A DNA stretch of 64,000 nucleotides from Tepidamorphaceae bacterium (GTDB lineage Bacteria; Pseudomonadota; Alphaproteobacteria; Rhizobiales; JAKSCL01): assembly GCA_028289445.1 (NCBI GenBank), contig JANQPO010000004.1:248001-312000 (forward strand). Reading direction: 5' to 3'. Each line of letters starts with the position of its first letter. The first letter of the stretch is position 1. This document shows positions 3,678 to 63,667 of this stretch, in pieces. A model generated the notes under the pieces. It worked only from the letters and a program-made list of their open reading frames with translations. It did no database searches and was not told the DNA's origin. A program made the translations under genes and the position numbers.

Positions 3678-5540
3678 TCACGCGGACTGTGATGTGGTTT
3701 TCTTTAGATAGGCGTCGAGATAGATCATCGCACTTGGTGTCATGCCATCAATCCCCGCCGCATCCCGCAGCGTTTCGGGGCCGGATTCCTCAAGTTTTTT
3801 CCTGAGCTCCATCGAGAGTCCCGGGAGCGATAGAAAGTCCAGGTCGGTCGGGATACGCGTCGCCGCATTGCGCCGATAGGTCTCGATATCGCGCCGTTGA
3901 CGACCCAAATAGACAGCATAGATCGCATCGGTCTGCACTTGACGCCGAAGCTCCGGGGAAATCGAGCCGAGGTCCGGCCAAAGCCCGATAAGCGTATCGA
4001 ACGAAATATCGGGGTACGACAGGAGATCGTACGCGGTGCGCCACTGTCCGTCTCGGTTAACCTGAAGGCCATGCCGAAGTGCGGTATCGGGTGTGACACG
4101 GTATTCCTTCAGCGTCTGTGTGGCCCGATCAAGCGCGTCCCTTTTCGCGTGGAACGCTTTTGCGCGTTGCGCGCCAACGCAACCGACACGAAGGCCGATC
4201 TCCGTCAGGCGCTGATCGGCATTGTCGGCGCGCAACGAAAGCCGGTATTCGGCGCGCGACGTGAACATACGGTAGGGTTCGCGCGCGCCACGCTTGATCA
4301 GGTCATCGACCAGAACGCCGAGATAGCCATCGGCGCGATCGAAGATGATGGCATCCGATTGGCCAGCCTGTGCCGCCGCGTTCAGTCCCGCGATCAGTCC
4401 CTGTGCCGCCGCCTCTTCATACCCAGTCGTACCGTTGATCTGACCCGCAAGATAGAGGCCCGCAATCGATCGGACTTCGAGAGTGGGCAGCAGGCTTCGC
4501 GGATCGACATAGTCATACTCGATCGCATATCCGGGTTCTTCGATTTCAACTTTCTCTAGTCCGGGTATGGTTCGTACGAATGCCACTTGTACGTCTTCGG
4601 GAAGCGAGGTCGAAATGCCGTTGGGATAGATTCGATCCGTATCTAATCCCTCCGGTTCAAGAAAGATTTGATGACTATCGCGATCGGCAAATCGGACGAT
4701 TTTGTCCTCGATCGATGGGCAATACCGCGGTCCGATGCCATCGATCTGCCCTGAGTACATGGCCGATCGATCAAGGTTGCCGGCAATGATGCGGTGCGTT
4801 TCCTCGTTCGTCCGCGTGATGTGGCAGTCCACTTGTGGCAGGCTAACGGCCTCAGTCAGCGCCGAAAAGAAAGTCGGATCGAGATCGCCAGGCTGACGAT
4901 CCAGTCCTGACCAATCGATAGTCTTGCCATCGAGGCGCGGCGGTGTTCCGGTCTTCAATCGACCCATGGGGAGACCGGAATTGTAGAGAACGGATGAAAG
5001 AGCGTTGGCCGGCGCCTCGCCACGGCGTCCTGCTGGGATACGCTTTTTGCCAACATGGATCACGCCGCGCAGAAAAGTTCCGGTCGTGAGCACGACCGCA
5101 CCACAGCGCAATACGGTCCCATCGCCAAGCCCTACCCCGCGAACGCAATGATCGTCGATGTCGAGTGTCGTAACCTCACCCTCGACGATGTCGAGGTTGT
5201 CGTAGGCGCGAAGAGCCGCTTGACTCGCGTCCTTGTAGACCTTGCGGTCGGCCTGTGCCCGCGGCCCTTGCACGGCCGCGCCCTTGCGGCGATTGAGCAA
5301 GCGAAATTGGATTCCGGCCGCGTCGGCGATGCGCCCCATCAATCCATCCAGCGCATCGATCTCCCGGACCAGATGCCCCTTGCCAAGGCCACCGATCGCT
5401 GGGTTGCACGACATCGTCCCAATCGCGTCGAAACTGTGCGTCGCAAGCGCCGTTCGAGCCCCCATACGCGCAGCGGCGGCTGCCGCCTCTAACCCGGCAT
5501 GGCCGCCACCGACCACAATCACGTCGTAGGCCTTGGTCAT
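3678..5540 (-). CDS. mnmG: tRNA 5-carboxymethylaminomethyl-uridine-34 synthase, FAD subunit
   Basis: MnmG (GidA) works with MnmE to modify U34 of tRNAs reading split codon boxes, using FAD, NADH and methylene-tetrahydrofolate or glycine. Length is 620 aa, as normal. The dinucleotide fold GGGHAG is at residues 11-16, the '[19 protein letters not shown]' signature near 46-64, and the second signature '[16 protein letters not shown]' near 367-382. It is followed after 3 bp by rsmG and preceded by mnmE on the same strand, with 95 bp between them that contain a parS site. Confidence 0.97.
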
Positions 5541-21531: not shown

Positions 21532-22119
21532 ATGCGCCAAGCCACGATTACCCGCGAAACCCGCGAAACCCAGATTACCGTGTCGGTCGACCTCGACGGC
21601 ACTGGCAAGTCGACGATTCAAACTGGCGTCGGCTTTCTCGATCACATGCTCGATCAAATCGCACGCCACGGCCTGTTCGATCTGACGGTGGAGGCCAAGG
21701 GCGATCTCCACATCGACGATCACCACACGGTGGAAGATATCGGGATAACCCTGGGACAAGCTGTGGCACAAGCACTTGGCGACAAGCGCGGCATTCGCCG
21801 CTATGCCGCCGTGACACTGCCCATGGATGAAGCGCTTTCTCGCGTCGCCCTCGATTTCTCGGGCCGGCCAGTTCTAGTGTGGCGGGTTGGGTTTTCCCGC
21901 GACAAGATCGGCACGCTTGATACCGAGCTGGTGCGCGAGTGGTTTCACGCCTTTGCGATGAACGCCGGCCTGACGCTGCATGTGGAAACGTTTTACGGCG
22001 ACAATGCACACCACGTCGCGGAGAGTTGCTTCAAGGGACTGGCGCGCGCGCTTCGTCAAGCCGTTGAAATCGATCCGCGCGATGCCGACCGAGTGCCGTC
22101 CACCAAAGGCTCGCTTTAG
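21532..22119 (+). CDS. hisB: Imidazoleglycerol-phosphate dehydratase
   Basis: HisB (monofunctional type) removes water from imidazole glycerol phosphate in histidine synthesis. Both metal-binding motifs are present: '[13 protein letters not shown]' (about 60-72) and '[16 protein letters not shown]' (about 160-175). The 195-aa length is normal. It starts a short plus-strand run hisB-DUF2628-hisH with 5-bp and 4-bp junctions. Confidence 0.97.
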
Positions 22120-22124
22120 GACCG

Positions 22125-22619
22125 ATGGCGAAAACATTCACAATTCATCTGCCGCCAGGCGGCGCAGCGCGAACGATTGCCGGCGCCGACACTTTGATCT
22201 TCGTGAAGGACGGCTTCGTCTGGCTCGCGTTCCTGTTTCCGATCCTGTGGATGCTCTTTCACTTCATGGGATGGCCGATCCTTGGCTATCTCGCGCTCAT
22301 TTTGGTCGCGGAGGTCATACTCGTCATGCTGGATGCCAGCGATGCCGCGATGATTGCCGCAGCACTGCTGCTTCAGATCGTGTTCGGCTTCGAAGCGAAC
22401 GCTGTCCGGCGCTGGAGCCTCAAGCGGAAGGGCTGGCAGCTGATCGGTGTCGTCAACGGACGCGATCTGTCGGAAGCGGAGGAAAAGGCGTTCGATTGGT
22501 GGCTGTCCGGCGCCTTACGCGGCGTAGCACCGGTCGAGATCGCGATGGAGCCTGACGCCGAGCCGCAAGACGAGCCGGAGGTCATTGGTCTGTTTCCATC
22601 GCCCGAGGCTAAAACTTGA
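22125..22619 (+). CDS. DUF2628-type membrane protein
   Basis: This 164-aa protein has a soluble start, two or three hydrophobic helices between about residues 35 and 85 ('[20 protein letters not shown]', then '[20 protein letters not shown]'), and an acidic C-terminal tail. Genes of this type commonly lie between hisB and hisH in Hyphomicrobiales, and this one overlaps hisH by 4 bp. No enzymatic motif is visible and no role in histidine synthesis is established. Confidence 0.8.
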
Positions 22620-27041: not shown

Positions 27042-27353
27042 TGGTGCGGGTGGTGAGACTCGAACTCACACTCCCTTGCGGGAACCAGATTTTGCTTACC
27101 AACTACGGCTTTCGCCGCTCCGCCAGATGGCGGATTTGTGGTCTGGACTTTCTCTTCACCTTACCCCGGATGCGCTCCGCGGCTTAGGTGGGTGCCGTCA
27201 AGTCTCTACACCTTTCCCTGATCGGGACTTGGCTCGGGATTGGCATCAGCCGGACTGGAAGCGTTCCCCGAATTTGACACCTGCACTGACCGGGTTTCCC
27301 CGGCAAGGACCCCATACGAAGTCTGGCGCGTCTACCAGTTCCGCCACACCCGC
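27042..27353 (-). tRNA. tRNA-Leu (probably CAA) interrupted by a group I intron
   Basis: Read on the minus strand, the gene begins GCGGGTGTGGCGGAACTGG (acceptor and D arm), runs to CCAGACT (anticodon 5' stem and U33), and resumes after the intron as CAAAATCTGG, the variable arm, the T arm GTGAGTTCGAGTCTCAC and CACCCGCACCA. GCGGGTG pairs with CACCCGC, CCAGA with TCTGG, and CCA is encoded. Exons are 27320-27353 (34 nt) and 27042-27094 (53 nt), 87 nt mature, with the long variable arm of class II tRNA. The anticodon loop CU-CAA-AA requires splicing between U33 and C34. Confidence 0.9.
27095..27319 (-). ncRNA. Self-splicing group I intron in the tRNA-Leu anticodon loop
   Basis: The 225-nt insertion ends in G, as group I introns do, and contains blocks that closely resemble the 205-nt Azoarcus tRNA-Ile intron. 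These are GTCAAATTCGGGGAA (27264-27278, P3/P4 region), GAGCCAAGTCCC (P5/P6 region), AGGTGTAGAGACTTGACGGC followed by ACCCACCTAAG (27183-27213, P7/P3/P8 core), and GAAAGTCCAGACC (P9 side). An internal guide GGGGTC lies a few bases into the intron and pairs with the exon end GACT/GACTT through U-G wobble. It is too short for a homing endonuclease gene. Confidence 0.88.
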
Positions 27354-30192: not shown

Positions 30193-30716
30193 TCGGCGTC
30201 CTTCGACAGTTCAGTGGCACCCAATTCGCGCTCGCCGCTCTAGGGCTGGCGGCGCTCACGATCGCCGGCGCCTGGGCCTTCGAGATCGTCGGCGGGTATC
30301 AGCCCTGCGCGCTATGCCTGACGCAGCGCAACCCCTATTACTTTGGCATCCCGCTCCTCGCGATTGCGGTACTAATCGCGGTGCGAGGCTCGCATCGAGG
30401 CGCGCTCCGAACACTTCTGGGCCTGGCCACTGCCGTGTTTCTCGTCGGAGCTGGCTACGGCGTCTATCATTCGGGTGTCGAATGGGGATGGTGGCCGGGG
30501 CCTGCGGCCTGCGGTGCCGGCAGCGATACGGCGGAGTCCGTCGGCGACCTTTTGACGCAGCTTGAAACGGTGCAGATCATCCGCTGCGACGAGGTCCAGT
30601 GGCGCGCCTTCGGGCTCACCTTCGCCAACTACAATGTGCTGATTTCGCTGGCGATCGCCATGCTGTCGCTTGGCGCGCTCAGCCGAACCTACGGTTCCAG
30701 TTCGGTATCCCAGTAG
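30189..30716 (+). CDS. dsbB: Disulfide bond formation protein B
   Basis: DsbB reoxidises DsbA by passing electrons to quinone. The 175-aa protein has four membrane helices, the first redox pair C40-x-x-C43 in 'YQPCALCLTQRNPYYF' and the second pair C108/C133 in the periplasmic loop ('GPAACGAGSD', 'IIRCDEVQW'). It is translationally coupled to exoD. The 3' end overlaps the convergent HNH gene by 28 bp. Confidence 0.92.
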   Translation: MIGVLRQFSGTQFALAALGLAALTIAGAWAFEIVGGYQPCALCLTQRNPYYFGIPLLAIAVLIAVRGSHRGALRTLLGLATAVFLVGAGYGVYHSGVEWGWWPGPAACGAGSDTAESVGDLLTQLETVQIIRCDEVQWRAFGLTFANYNVLISLAIAMLSLGALSRTYGSSSVSQ

Positions 30717-31246
30717 AGGAAGTCGAGCCAGCTTTCGTGCAAATGGTTCGGCGGGAACAGCCGTCCATTGCTGTGAAGGTCCTGCATCGTGGGCCGATAA
30801 GGCGGCTGCGCCGGCCACATTTTGGCGTCATCCGGCATCTTGCCGCCCTTCCTCAAATTGCAGGGCGCGCAGGCCGCGACGACATTTTCCCAAGTCGTCT
30901 GACCGCCGCGCGAGCGTGGGATCAGGTGGTCGAAGGTCAGGTCGTTCGCGGCGCCGCAATACTGGCAGGTGAAGCGGTCGCGCAGGAAGACGTTGAAGCG
31001 CGTAAAGGCCGGGTGCCGGGTGGGCCGAATATAGTCTTTCAGCGCCACCACGCTCGGCAGCTGCATTTCAAAGCTCGGACTGTGCACCACCTTGTCGTAG
31101 TGCTCGACGATATTCACCCGGTCAAGGAACACCGCCTTGATGGCATCCTGCCAGGACCAGAGCGACAAGGGGAAGTACGAGAGCGGACGATAATCGGCAT
31201 TCAACACGAGCGCGGGACACGCGTCGGGCGAAACGTGGACAGTCAA
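30689..31246 (-). CDS. HNH endonuclease family protein
   Basis: The 185-aa protein has the zinc ribbon-type HNH fold: 'FTCQYCGAANDLTFDHLIPR' then 'GGQTTWENVVAACAPCNLRK', giving the C-x-x-C pairs, the catalytic histidine and the asparagine. The family is widespread and chromosomal in Hyphomicrobiales as a housekeeping-like HNH protein, sometimes annotated as a restriction nuclease without evidence. It stands alone here, its 3' end overlapping convergent dsbB by 28 bp, with no methylase nearby. A phage-like context is absent. Confidence 0.88.
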   Translation of the reverse strand: MTVHVSPDACPALVLNADYRPLSYFPLSLWSWQDAIKAVFLDRVNIVEHYDKVVHSPSFEMQLPSVVALKDYIRPTRHPAFTRFNVFLRDRFTCQYCGAANDLTFDHLIPRSRGGQTTWENVVAACAPCNLRKGGKMPDDAKMWPAQPPYRPTMQDLHSNGRLFPPNHLHESWLDFLYWDTELEP

Positions 31247-60507: not shown

Positions 60508-62091
60508 CTAAAACGTCTTTAGGTATTCGATCAGCGCGCGCTTATCGCTGTCGGCAAGCGTCGTGCCGTAGAGATGCCCACCGCTACCATTGCCCTTGCA
60601 GACGCCGCCGTCGCATGTGCCGTTGTTGTTCGGCGCGTTGCCACCGCATTGGGCGCGGCCTGCCTGGTCGGTCATGAAGCAGAAGAGATGGCGGCGCTCA
60701 TCCGCGGGCAGTCGGATCGACCGGGACTCGAAGCCGACATTGACCGGATCGTAGCGATCGCTGCCCCGATAGAAGGCCTTCGGTCGGTCGGCTGGGTCTT
60801 GAAGCATGTTCCACAGCGTCGGCACCGACCCGTTGTGCAGATAAGGCGCGCGCAGCCAGAGGCCGTCGAGCGGTGCGTTGGCGTAGCCTTGGGTCTTGCG
60901 GAAGTTCTGGAAGCGTTCCTCGCCGTAAGACGCGTAGAGCATGTTTTGATTGTAGGCGAGGTCGAGCGTGTAGTTGTCGAGCCGATAGCGATCGGTCGCG
61001 ATTTGGGCGATCGGCGTGACCGTCCCGACATCGTCGCCGGAGAAATCGCGGCCGGTCACACCATGACAGCTCGCGCAGTTCGCGAGGTAGATCGACCGCC
61101 CGCGCTCAGCGATTTCGGAATCGAAATGATCTGGAAACAGATCGGCAAACTTTGGTGGTTCGGCGTCCAAGAGCCAGTCTTCCATGACTTTGATGGACCG
61201 GCGATCAAGCAGTGGCGGCAAAGCGCCGGTGCCGAAAGCGGCGGAGCGGTTGCGTTCTTCAACCTTCGTGTTGTTGCCGTCCCAGTGAAGCTGCATGCCC
61301 TGCCGCTGCCGTTGCAGCCAGACCGATGGAAAGTCGACGACGCCGATCCGCTCGTTCTCCGGCACTTGGTTGGGCGGCCAGTTGAACAGCGCCTTGGCCG
61401 GCGAGAACGTGTCGAACCGGCCCGGTCCAAACGCCGGCTCGTGCGCGGCGAATTGAAAACGATCGGCAATCGTCAAGATGCGCTGGCGGACCTGATAGAC
61501 GGCGAAGAACTTGAAGATCAGCCGGTTGATCCAGTCGAGCTCGACATCGAGCGCGTCGATCTGGCCGATGATGTCCTCCGGCGTGAACCGCTCGTCGATG
61601 GCCGCAGCGATCATGAAGTCCTGAAAGGCCTGAAGGTCGAGGGTGTTCGCCGGCATGCCGGCATAGATCACCGGCGCGCCATCGCCGGCCGGCCGCACCT
61701 GGCCGGCATGACACGAGGCGCAATTTACGAAGATGCGCTCGATACCCTGGTAGTTCCGAAGCGCCGTACCGACCGGGCGCTCGCGCCGGAGTTCGGGTGG
61801 CAGATCGTTCTCGTCCTCATAAAGGAATCCGAACGCCGCCCACCCTTCGTCTTCGCGGCCTTCCGGCATGTGGTCGCGAAAGAGCACCGGCATGATCTTC
61901 CAGATCGCGTAAGGGAAGCCGAAATTGCGGTCGCCGCCGGTCGATCCGTATTTGAAATGGGCGACCGGGTCGTCGAAGGCCTCCGCCCGGTCCGTCAAAA
62001 GGCGGACCGCCATATAGGCACCGAACACGACAACCGCGACGCCGGCCAAAACCGAGAGTCGCTTGAACCAACGCCACAGGAAACTCATCAT
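60508..62091 (-). CDS. Second membrane-anchored dihaem cytochrome, paralogue of the downstream gene
   Basis: From ATG 62091, 527 aa: an N-terminal membrane helix ('LSVLAGVAVVVFGAYMAVRL') and haem sites C124-x-x-C-H128 ('NCASCHAGQVRPAG') and C339-x-x-C-H343 ('NCASCHGVTGRDFS'). It shares 'DFPSVWLQRQRQGMQLHWDG', 'APYLHNGSVPTLWNMLQDPA' and 'GSGGHLYGTTLADSDKRALI' with the next gene. This clear pairing suggests a duplication with divergence or two subunits. It lies 21 bp before the next gene and 16 bp after the previous. Confidence 0.85.
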   Translation of the reverse strand: MMSFLWRWFKRLSVLAGVAVVVFGAYMAVRLLTDRAEAFDDPVAHFKYGSTGGDRNFGFPYAIWKIMPVLFRDHMPEGREDEGWAAFGFLYEDENDLPPELRRERPVGTALRNYQGIERIFVNCASCHAGQVRPAGDGAPVIYAGMPANTLDLQAFQDFMIAAAIDERFTPEDIIGQIDALDVELDWINRLIFKFFAVYQVRQRILTIADRFQFAAHEPAFGPGRFDTFSPAKALFNWPPNQVPENERIGVVDFPSVWLQRQRQGMQLHWDGNNTKVEERNRSAAFGTGALPPLLDRRSIKVMEDWLLDAEPPKFADLFPDHFDSEIAERGRSIYLANCASCHGVTGRDFSGDDVGTVTPIAQIATDRYRLDNYTLDLAYNQNMLYASYGEERFQNFRKTQGYANAPLDGLWLRAPYLHNGSVPTLWNMLQDPADRPKAFYRGSDRYDPVNVGFESRSIRLPADERRHLFCFMTDQAGRAQCGGNAPNNNGTCDGGVCKGNGSGGHLYGTTLADSDKRALIEYLKTF

Positions 62092-62107
62092 GACTCGCCC
62101 CCCTGCG

Positions 62108-63667
62108 TCATGACCCTTGGTCCATCTTATCGAGAAGGGCGGCAACAATCACCCGTCGCTGGAACGGACCTTCGGCGAAAATCTCTGGGGGCAGATCTTC
62201 GATGGCCGTGTCGAGCGAGGCCACGTCATCGATCACAGAGATCGTTGCCGTGATCGCTGCCCAGGGTTCGTCAAGCGCAAGTGTGAGAGACGAGAGACGC
62301 TCGCCGGTGGCAAGCCGTGCAGGTGCGCCGGTACCCTGATGAAGGGCAAGCGTTAACGTGTTGCCACTGCGCGATGACGTGTCATCGGCGATCTGTACGC
62401 GATGAAGCGGCGCGCGGTCGACCAGTCGAAGCGTGTCGATCCGCCCGCCGACAATGCGCTCATCGTCCAATTGAACGAAGCCGGAGAGTTGCAGGGCTTC
62501 GTTTGTTTCGCAGTCGAATCGAACCTCGTCGGGCCGTGTGTCATGCCGTGCGAGCCGCGCAACGCAAGCGGACTGAAATCGCTGCCGCTCACCGTCGCGT
62601 GTCATCAATCGAGAAGCGATCGCCGCGATATCGCGATCGGGAAGAAGCATCGCGAGGGAGCGAACGGCCCTGTGCATATCGGCAATTCGATCGCCGGACA
62701 CTGGCCAGATTATCCGGCTTGGGCGCGCTGTCTCGGGATCGAAAACACCGGCGGCCTGAACGATGTCGCCGGGGGCGATGCCGGCCTCAAGGTCAACTGC
62801 CGGGTTACGGCTCGGGATTTGAAAATCGGCAAGCGCGAAACCCTGAGGCCAATCCGCATTAAGCCGCTCCTGGAGTGTTTCCGCCAGTTCGCCATGGTCG
62901 GCAACGGCCCGGTCGCCGCCCAGGCGAAAACGGAGAGCGGTCGTCAGGAGCCCGGTTCGGCAGCGCCGCGCCCGGTCGCCGGGGTCGCACACCTCGCGCC
63001 ACAGCCATTGTGCTGCAATTAGGTCGTTGGCGCGGGCGACCGACTGATCGAAGGCGTCTGGCTCATCGATCCCTCGCCTGACGGGAATACCGTGGAACGT
63101 ATCGCCTAGACCGGTAAGCCGCGCCGAAATCGCCGGGTTGCCGTTCGTCTCGTCCCAAAGCGGCGCGGAAAAGATTGGTGCACCGCCTTGATGACAGGTA
63201 AGGCAGATGTCCCGGTCCACGGGTGCGAAGATGTTCGGTTGATCGGCGCTGTAGTCTTCGATCGTTCGGAACTCGAACTGGCCGCTTTCCTCGCTGAACG
63301 CGATGGCCTCGATGATACCCGATGCCGGTTGGAAGCCGAGGAACACGCGGTCTTTCAATGCCGGGCCCGCGCCCGCATCCTGATCCACCGCGACGACGAT
63401 CCGGGGCGATACGAAATAGTCCGGATCGGCGGAAAACCGCTGAAGGGAACGACCGATCGGGATCAGCGCGGTTCGCACCTGAGCCGGCGCGATGCGCGCA
63501 TTGAGCGCCGCAACAAGGGCTTCAAACGGATAGGGCGTCCCGCCGCTTGCTTCGCTGAAGATTTCATCAAGTGCTGACACCGGCGTTTCCGCCTGGGCCG
63601 CGCCGATCGACAGGCCAACCGTCAGCGCGGTGACCAATGCAGCACGGCGTGTGCGCGGGGCGGTCAT
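62108..63667 (-). CDS. Exported protein with a single haem c site, unknown family
   Basis: From ATG 63667, 519 aa with a signal peptide ('AALVTALTVGLSIGAAQA') and one haem c motif C155-x-x-C-H159 in 'DRDICLTCHQGGAPIFSAPL'. The rest shows beta-rich low-complexity character without other motifs I recognise. Its position upstream of the two dihaem cytochromes suggests a partner in the same periplasmic process. The gene before it ends 7 bp away. Confidence 0.75.
   Translation of the reverse strand: MTAPRTRRAALVTALTVGLSIGAAQAETPVSALDEIFSEASGGTPYPFEALVAALNARIAPAQVRTALIPIGRSLQRFSADPDYFVSPRIVVAVDQDAGAGPALKDRVFLGFQPASGIIEAIAFSEESGQFEFRTIEDYSADQPNIFAPVDRDICLTCHQGGAPIFSAPLWDETNGNPAISARLTGLGDTFHGIPVRRGIDEPDAFDQSVARANDLIAAQWLWREVCDPGDRARRCRTGLLTTALRFRLGGDRAVADHGELAETLQERLNADWPQGFALADFQIPSRNPAVDLEAGIAPGDIVQAAGVFDPETARPSRIIWPVSGDRIADMHRAVRSLAMLLPDRDIAAIASRLMTRDGERQRFQSACVARLARHDTRPDEVRFDCETNEALQLSGFVQLDDERIVGGRIDTLRLVDRAPLHRVQIADDTSSRSGNTLTLALHQGTGAPARLATGERLSSLTLALDEPWAAITATISVIDDVASLDTAIEDLPPEIFAEGPFQRRVIVAALLDKMDQGS

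What the first reader, a model, noticed from the sequence alone, without database searches (positions are those of the whole stretch)
27042..27353. tRNA-Leu gene split by an Azoarcus-like group I intron
The minus strand shows two tRNA halves that fit together (acceptor, D, anticodon, long variable arm, T arm, encoded CCA) with 225 nt between them that contain group I core blocks (GTCAAATTCGGGGAA, GTGTAGAGACTTGACGGC, GAAAGTCCAGACC). The 3' splice requires a terminal G, so the insertion would be between U33 and C34, giving anticodon CAA. Known bacterial examples sit in tRNA-Leu(UAA), tRNA-Arg(CCU), tRNA-Ile(CAU) and initiator tRNA; an insertion 5' of the anticodon in a CAA leucine tRNA would be unusual. 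Standard tRNA finders may miss it.
Basis: partly seen in the sequence, partly recalled or inferred. Interest (0 to 1): 0.85.

Follow-up and report, generated by a model that had tools for sequence, protein, structure and literature searches.

The report
Self-splicing intron inside a leucine tRNA
In this bacterium the only gene found for one leucine tRNA is cut in two by a small RNA that very probably splices itself out, at a spot just before the anticodon where bacterial tRNA introns are not described in the papers I could search, although some phages carry such introns too.

Summary
The minus strand of 27042-27353 is a tRNA-Leu gene with encoded CCA, interrupted by 225 nt (27095-27319) that match the Rfam group I intron model over its full length (56 bits, gathering 50, E 1.6e-11). 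Joining U33 to C34 gives a normal 7-nt anticodon loop, CUCAAAA, anticodon CAA. The joined exons match intact tRNA-Leu(CAA) genes of related Rhizobiales at 83-86% over full length. No other tRNA-Leu(CAA) was found in the 99.9%-complete genome, and ARAGORN without an intron setting finds no tRNA in the window. The ribozyme itself is ordinary: small, tRNA-type, without an ORF. The site is unusual. Other bacterial introns examined sit at 34|35 in Leu(UAA) or 36|37 in Thr(GGU), Thr(UGU) and Arg(CCU). Pattern screens of about 1,100 genomes found no second CAA case. One 211-kb IMG/VR phage contig has an intron at the identical site of its tRNA-Leu(CAA), and other phage tRNAs carry relatives at 33|34 to 36|37, each after a U. 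The gene lies in a neighbourhood (ExoD/DsbB/HNH) shared with intron-free relatives, so the intron probably entered a resident gene. Splicing is inferred, not shown.

The parts
27320..27353 (-). 5' exon of tRNA-Leu (acceptor 5' strand, D arm, anticodon stem 5' strand, C32 U33)
   Evidence: ARAGORN with introns; identical cut in script
27095..27319 (-). group I intron, 225 nt, no ORF, inserted between U33 and C34; last base G (omega-G) at 27095
   Evidence: RF00028 56 bits, full-length model match; conserved 3' end GGUAAG; ARAGORN i(35,225)
27042..27094 (-). 3' exon of tRNA-Leu (anticodon C34 A35 A36, A37 A38, long variable arm, T arm, acceptor, encoded CCA)
   Evidence: ARAGORN; 53/53 match to the spliced query
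27308..27311 (-). internal guide sequence GGUC pairing with exon GACU (27320-27323) to form P1, U33-G wobble at the splice site
   Evidence: pairing script; pairing is inferred
27290..27303 (-). P2 hairpin CCGGG-GAAA-CCCGG with GNRA tetraloop
   Evidence: sequence; consensus helix columns 37-63
27276..27281 (-). P3 5' strand GGUGUC
   Evidence: covarying helix columns 67-72/165-170
27191..27196 (-). P3 3' strand GGCACC
   Evidence: covarying helix
27200..27204 (-). P7 5' strand GACUU (guanosine-binding site helix)
   Evidence: Rfam alignment; helix assignment by comparison with the family
27146..27150 (-). P7 3' strand AAGUC
   Evidence: Rfam alignment; U/A covariation with ACUA...UAGU introns
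27106..27117 (-). P9 hairpin CGGC-GAAA-GCCG with GNRA tetraloop
   Evidence: consensus helix columns 245-258, with covariation

Best explanation
A small tRNA-type (IC3-like) group I intron interrupts the only tRNA-Leu(CAA) gene found in this genome, between U33 and C34. The precursor tRNA is transcribed with the intron in its anticodon loop. The intron folds into P1-P9. Exogenous guanosine, bound in P7, attacks after U33, which is held in a U-G wobble in P1. The freed U33 3' hydroxyl then attacks after the terminal G of the intron, joining U33 to C34 and giving the loop CUCAAAA. Gene structure, fold and joint are supported by sequence comparison. Transcription, self-splicing and use of the tRNA are inferred from established group I chemistry. 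The intron most likely entered a resident chromosomal gene, from a pool of tRNA introns shared with phages and plasmids; the donor is not identified.
For: Full-length RF00028 match, single in the genome. Exon joint reproduces intact tRNA-Leu(CAA) of relatives: G005 86%, G018 85%, G016 84%, G014 83% over 87 nt. No other CAA gene among the genome's tRNAs; Leu UAA, UAG, CAG and GAG are intact. De novo consensus fold of 12 tRNA introns recovers P2, P3, P4, P5, P6, P8 and P9, with compensatory double changes at 31 of 47 pairs. 3' end GGUA-N-G shared. A phage contig has an intron at the same site of tRNA-Leu(CAA). Neighbourhood with ExoD, DsbB and HNH shared with intron-free relatives. A core-only tree puts the window with phage-type introns, support 99/98.
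Against: No transcript or splicing data. Two adjacent U-G pairs in P1 leave the 5' cut ambiguous by one base. P10 is weak (C34-G, then a mismatch; read from sequence). A tree on a different alignment placed the window with a phage tRNA-fMet intron inside the bacterial Leu(UAA) group, so ancestry is unsettled. The phage introns were found with a pattern sharing the P7/P3 bases, which favours their grouping. The genome is in 26 contigs, so an intact second copy in a gap is not fully excluded.
Confidence: 0.92

Rival explanations
1. The intron is spliced one base later: the 5' cut falls after the second U and the 3' cut after the C, so the tRNA is a second tRNA-Leu(UAA) at the classical 34|35 site and the intron ends in C.
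For: P1 can extend by one more U-G pair over that U, and CUU|AAAA is the commonest site in relatives.
Against: Group I introns need a terminal G (established knowledge) and the relatives fitted here end GGUA-N-G. The genome already has an intact tRNA-Leu(UAA) and no other CAA gene. The exon bodies match CAA genes of relatives.
Confidence: 0.04
2. A decayed, non-splicing intron in a tRNA pseudogene; UUG is read by tRNA-Leu(UAA) through wobble.
For: tRNA-Leu(UAA) exists and could in principle read UUG. No transcript data.
Against: Conserved core blocks, P3, P7, tetraloops and all tRNA stems are intact. UUG is 15% of leucine codons in 17 neighbouring genes, more than UUA or CUA, so the tRNA is likely used.
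Confidence: 0.03
3. The whole intron-bearing tRNA gene was brought in as a unit by a phage or plasmid and replaced the native copy (a rival about origin only; it is compatible with splicing as described).
For: Phages carry intron-bearing tRNA-Leu(CAA). The same-family genome G001 has a CAA tRNA with a different acceptor stem, GCCCCUG instead of GCGGGUG.
Against: The gene lies near ExoD, DsbB and HNH genes, as in several intron-free relatives. The ten neighbouring proteins searched match ordinary chromosomal families, no integrase or phage gene. The exons are close to other Rhizobiales, while the phage exons read GCGAGCGUGG...CACUCGU.
Confidence: 0.1

Closest known systems
[quoted passage not shown]
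   Same: Same kind of ribozyme (RF00028), size, 3' end GGUA-N-G, leucine tRNA, cut after a U in the anticodon loop
   Different: Those sit between U34 and A35 of the UAA isoacceptor; here U33|C34 of CAA. P3 and P7 pairs differ: GGUGUC/GGCACC and ACUU/AAGU, versus CUGCUC/GGGCAG and ACUA/UAGU
Azoarcus tRNA-Ile(CAU) group I intron (IC3)
   Same: Small ORF-less intron in a proteobacterial tRNA; P3 and P7 blocks resemble it (from memory, not aligned here)
   Different: Azoarcus sits after U36 of a CAU tRNA (from memory); here U33|C34 of CAA
Phage contig IMGVR_UViG_3300025103_000004, tRNA-Leu(CAA) intron (L217:2808-3035 minus)
   Same: Identical tRNA identity and identical site 33|34, 228 nt, same core type GUGUAGAGACUUGACGGC
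   Different: Different exons and peripheral loops; lies on a 211-kb viral contig that also encodes a tRNA-His guanylyltransferase
Tritonibacter mobilis megaplasmid tRNA-Thr(UGU) intron (L218)
   Same: Best-scoring DNA match seen in the plasmid collection, 77.7% over 82% of the intron; same P3 and P7 bases
   Different: Site 36|37 of a threonine tRNA; the joined exons occur intact, 100% identical, in Ruegeria sp. TM1040

Membership tests
Group I introns (Rfam RF00028) | Score above the curated gathering threshold over the full model | tested here: met
   56.0 bits against 50, positions 1-253 of 253
Group I introns (Rfam RF00028) | 5' exon ends in U, paired with G in P1 | tested here: met
   GACU/GGUC with U33-G; a second U-G lies next to it
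Group I introns (Rfam RF00028) | Last intron base is G | tested here: met
   G at 27095 before C34
Group I introns (Rfam RF00028) | P3-P8 and P4-P6 helices supported by covariation | tested here: met
   31 of 47 consensus pairs have compensatory changes in 12 introns; P4 is nearly invariant there, and P7 was read from the Rfam alignment
Group I introns (Rfam RF00028) | Guanosine-dependent self-splicing | not testable with these tools
   Needs RNA
IC3 tRNA introns (Azoarcus type) | Small size, insertion in a tRNA anticodon loop, GNRA loops in P2 and P9 | tested here: met
   225 nt; CCGGG-GAAA-CCCGG and CGGC-GAAA-GCCG
IC3 tRNA introns (Azoarcus type) | Formal subgroup assignment or alignment with Azoarcus | not tested
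   No held copy of the Azoarcus intron and no subgroup models
tRNA-Leu(UAA) intron lineage | Insertion between U34 and A35 of the UAA isoacceptor | tested here: not met
   33|34 in CAA; separate intact UAA gene

The most novel reading that the evidence does not exclude
Phages keep a diverse pool of group I introns that can sit after almost any U of a tRNA anticodon loop (33|34 to 36|37), some with an HNH endonuclease gene, and this pool seeds bacterial tRNA genes. The window would be a bacterial case of the 33|34 class, which separates U33 from the anticodon.
Probability: 0.45. Interest if true: 0.7.

Novelty: new variant of a known kind. Interest (0 to 1): 0.5.

Why it matters
Held reviews describe bacterial tRNA group I introns as few, mostly immediately downstream of the anticodon (PMC4033280), and phage introns as all lying in protein genes (PMC3984707, 2014). 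A bacterial and a phage tRNA-Leu(CAA) with introns at 33|34 extend both statements. The rule seen here, that the intron follows a U wherever the loop offers one, makes mobility by reverse splicing versus endonuclease homing testable. Practically, such genes vanish from default tRNA annotation and make a genome look as if it lacked an isoacceptor.

Tried and rejected
Default ARAGORN misses the gene. Pattern GTADGCAAAATCTG in 397 order genomes gave 12 hits besides the window, all chance. Pattern screens for the CAA junction: class 385 genomes and phylum 398 genomes gave only the window; the other class hits that could be read are Leu(UAA) or Arg(CCU) introns. The sets overlap, the order set was screened with a narrower pattern, and exact patterns miss diverged cores, so 'only one' holds for these patterns. 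Phage blastn gave only short or partial matches. A first tree on all columns conflicts with the core-only tree; a sister relation between the window and L217 is neither supported nor rejected (AU p 0.13). My automatic splice-site fit gave wrong fits for a number of loci (for example L058, L071, L205, L212); I used only rows with the GGUA-N-G end and a sensible tRNA. A search for more introns with the same P3/P7 bases in the phylum returned only the window. Literature searches found no report of a bacterial tRNA-Leu(CAA) group I intron; subscription papers are not held.

Full report
What is there. On the minus strand, 27353-27320 reads GCGGGTGTGGCGGAACTGGTAGACGCGCCAGACT and 27094-27042 reads CAAAATCTGGTTCCCGCAAGGGAGTGTGAGTTCGAGTCTCACCACCCGCACCA. 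Joined, they give an 87-nt tRNA-Leu with a long variable arm, encoded CCA and the loop CUCAAAA. The 225 nt between them hit Rfam RF00028 over the whole model at 56.0 bits, E 1.6e-11; it is the only Rfam hit in the window and the only RF00028 hit in the genome. ARAGORN finds no tRNA in default mode; with introns allowed it returns tRNA-Leu(caa) with a 225-nt intron.

Is it the only CAA gene? RF00005 found 44 other tRNAs in the 3.95-Mb, 26-contig genome (99.89% complete). They include Leu UAA, UAG, CAG and GAG, but no CAA. UUG is 15% of leucine codons in 17 neighbouring genes. The gene therefore probably matters, although tRNA-Leu(UAA) may read UUG by wobble.

Where are the splice sites? Intact tRNA-Leu(CAA) genes of relatives in the order (G005, G018, G016, G014) are 83-86% identical to the joined exons over full length and carry CUCAAAA uninterrupted. 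The 3' boundary is fixed by the terminal G and by the family end GGUA-N-G. The 5' boundary is inferred: P1 pairs GACU with GGUC, U33 against G, but the next intron base U can also wobble with G. Cutting after U33 gives a 7-nt loop; cutting after the next U would give 8.

Fold. A consensus of 12 tRNA introns, with no structure supplied, recovers P2, P3, P4, P5, P6, P8 and P9. Of 47 pairs, 31 show a change on both sides with pairing kept. P3 covaries strongly, GGUGUC/GGCACC here against CUGCUC/GGGCAG in Rhizobiales Leu(UAA) introns. P7 covaries as ACUU/AAGU against ACUA/UAGU; P7 is a pseudoknot, so that program does not draw it. P2 and P9 end in GAAA loops.

Comparison with other bacteria. RF00028 matched 35 of 297 order genomes. 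The loci inspected carry Leu(UAA) introns at 34|35, Thr(GGU) at 36|37 and Arg(CCU) at 36|37. A junction pattern covering both Leu types found 16 of 385 class genomes, and only the window was CAA. A CAA-only pattern found the window alone in 398 phylum genomes.

Phages. The same CAA junction pattern in IMG/VR found one contig, IMGVR_UViG_3300025103_000004 (211 kb). Its tRNA-Leu(CAA) has a 228-nt intron at the same 33|34 site. A core pattern found 29 viral contig stretches. Those with a clear tRNA fit include Arg(UCU) at 34|35, Arg(UCU) at 33|34 (L236) and at 36|37 (L246), initiator-like CAU at 33|34 (L245), Asn(GUU) at 35|36, Ser(UGA) at 34|35, Leu(UAA) at 34|35, and CAU tRNAs L033 and L035 read by eye at 36|37. 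In each the last 5' exon base is U. In three introns of this kind (viral L230, bacterial L206, uncultured phage L221) an ORF of 153-189 codons ending in an HNH-like motif (LELDHIDG...LLCPNCHA) lies between P4 and P7 (motif read by eye).

Origin. Within 1.5 kb of their CAA gene, nine intron-free relatives have DsbB, ExoD or HNH homologues of the window's neighbours at 29.5-31.3 kb. The window's gene thus sits in an ancestral neighbourhood, and the intron probably came in later. Donor and route are open. A core-only tree groups the window with phage and Tritonibacter introns (99/98), but an all-column tree did not, and the phage set was chosen by a shared motif. For Tritonibacter the empty site is clear: Ruegeria sp. 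TM1040 has the identical joined tRNA without the intron.

Mechanism. Standard two-step group I splicing is by far the likeliest reading. It rests on the family match and established chemistry, not on an experiment here.

Novelty. The ribozyme is an ordinary member of a known class. Isoacceptor and site are new among the genomes and papers searched. A review in the library places bacterial tRNA introns mainly just downstream of the anticodon, and a 2014 review states that phage introns lie only in protein genes. I therefore call it a new variant of a known kind.

Noticed in passing
L227, L228, L229, L231, L232, L236, L243, L244, L245, L246, L032-L035 and others (IMG/VR contigs): Group I introns in many phage tRNA genes (Arg, Asn, Ser, Leu, CAU) at anticodon-loop sites 33|34 to 36|37, each after a U. 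A 2014 review (PMC3984707) says phage introns lie only in protein genes.
   Followed up: partly
L230 (about 3760-4290), L206, L221: ORFs with an HNH-like motif inside tRNA group I introns, between P4 and P7: likely homing endonucleases.
   Followed up: partly
L220 (pCTX-M3 61823-62121) and more than 1,250 plasmid records: 1266 plasmid records, mostly enterobacterial, match the intron at 60-80% identity. The one inspected is a group I intron-bearing tRNA-Leu(UAA) next to an AAA-ATPase gene and aac(3)-IId; its nearest tree neighbour is a Rhizobiales intron, which hints at the source of that module.
   Followed up: partly
L226: Phage tRNA with intron whose spliced loop would read CUUCAAA, anticodon UCA: a possible UGA-reading tRNA.
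   Followed up: no
L218 and Ruegeria sp. TM1040 NC_008042.1 23609-23684: Tritonibacter mobilis megaplasmid tRNA-Thr(UGU) with a group I intron; Ruegeria carries the 100% identical joined tRNA without it, a clean empty site.
   Followed up: partly
L222 (KT997847.1 about 22100-22290): Group I-like core between two annotated capsid CDS of a marine podovirus: probably an intron splitting the capsid gene.
   Followed up: no
L049, genome G167 contig C36 10660-10912 and 12146-12405: Two strong group I introns (82 and 89 bits) 1.5 kb apart; ARAGORN finds no tRNA in L049, so the host gene is probably something else.
   Followed up: no
L217 7403-8128 minus: The 211-kb phage contig with the same-site intron also encodes a tRNA-His guanylyltransferase (PHROG 4717, E 1.5e-90).
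   Followed up: no
window 30689-31246 minus: Free-standing HNH protein (PF14279/PF01844) 3.3 kb from the intron; homologues lie near tRNA-Leu(CAA) in intron-free relatives too, so probably not the intron's endonuclease.
   Followed up: partly
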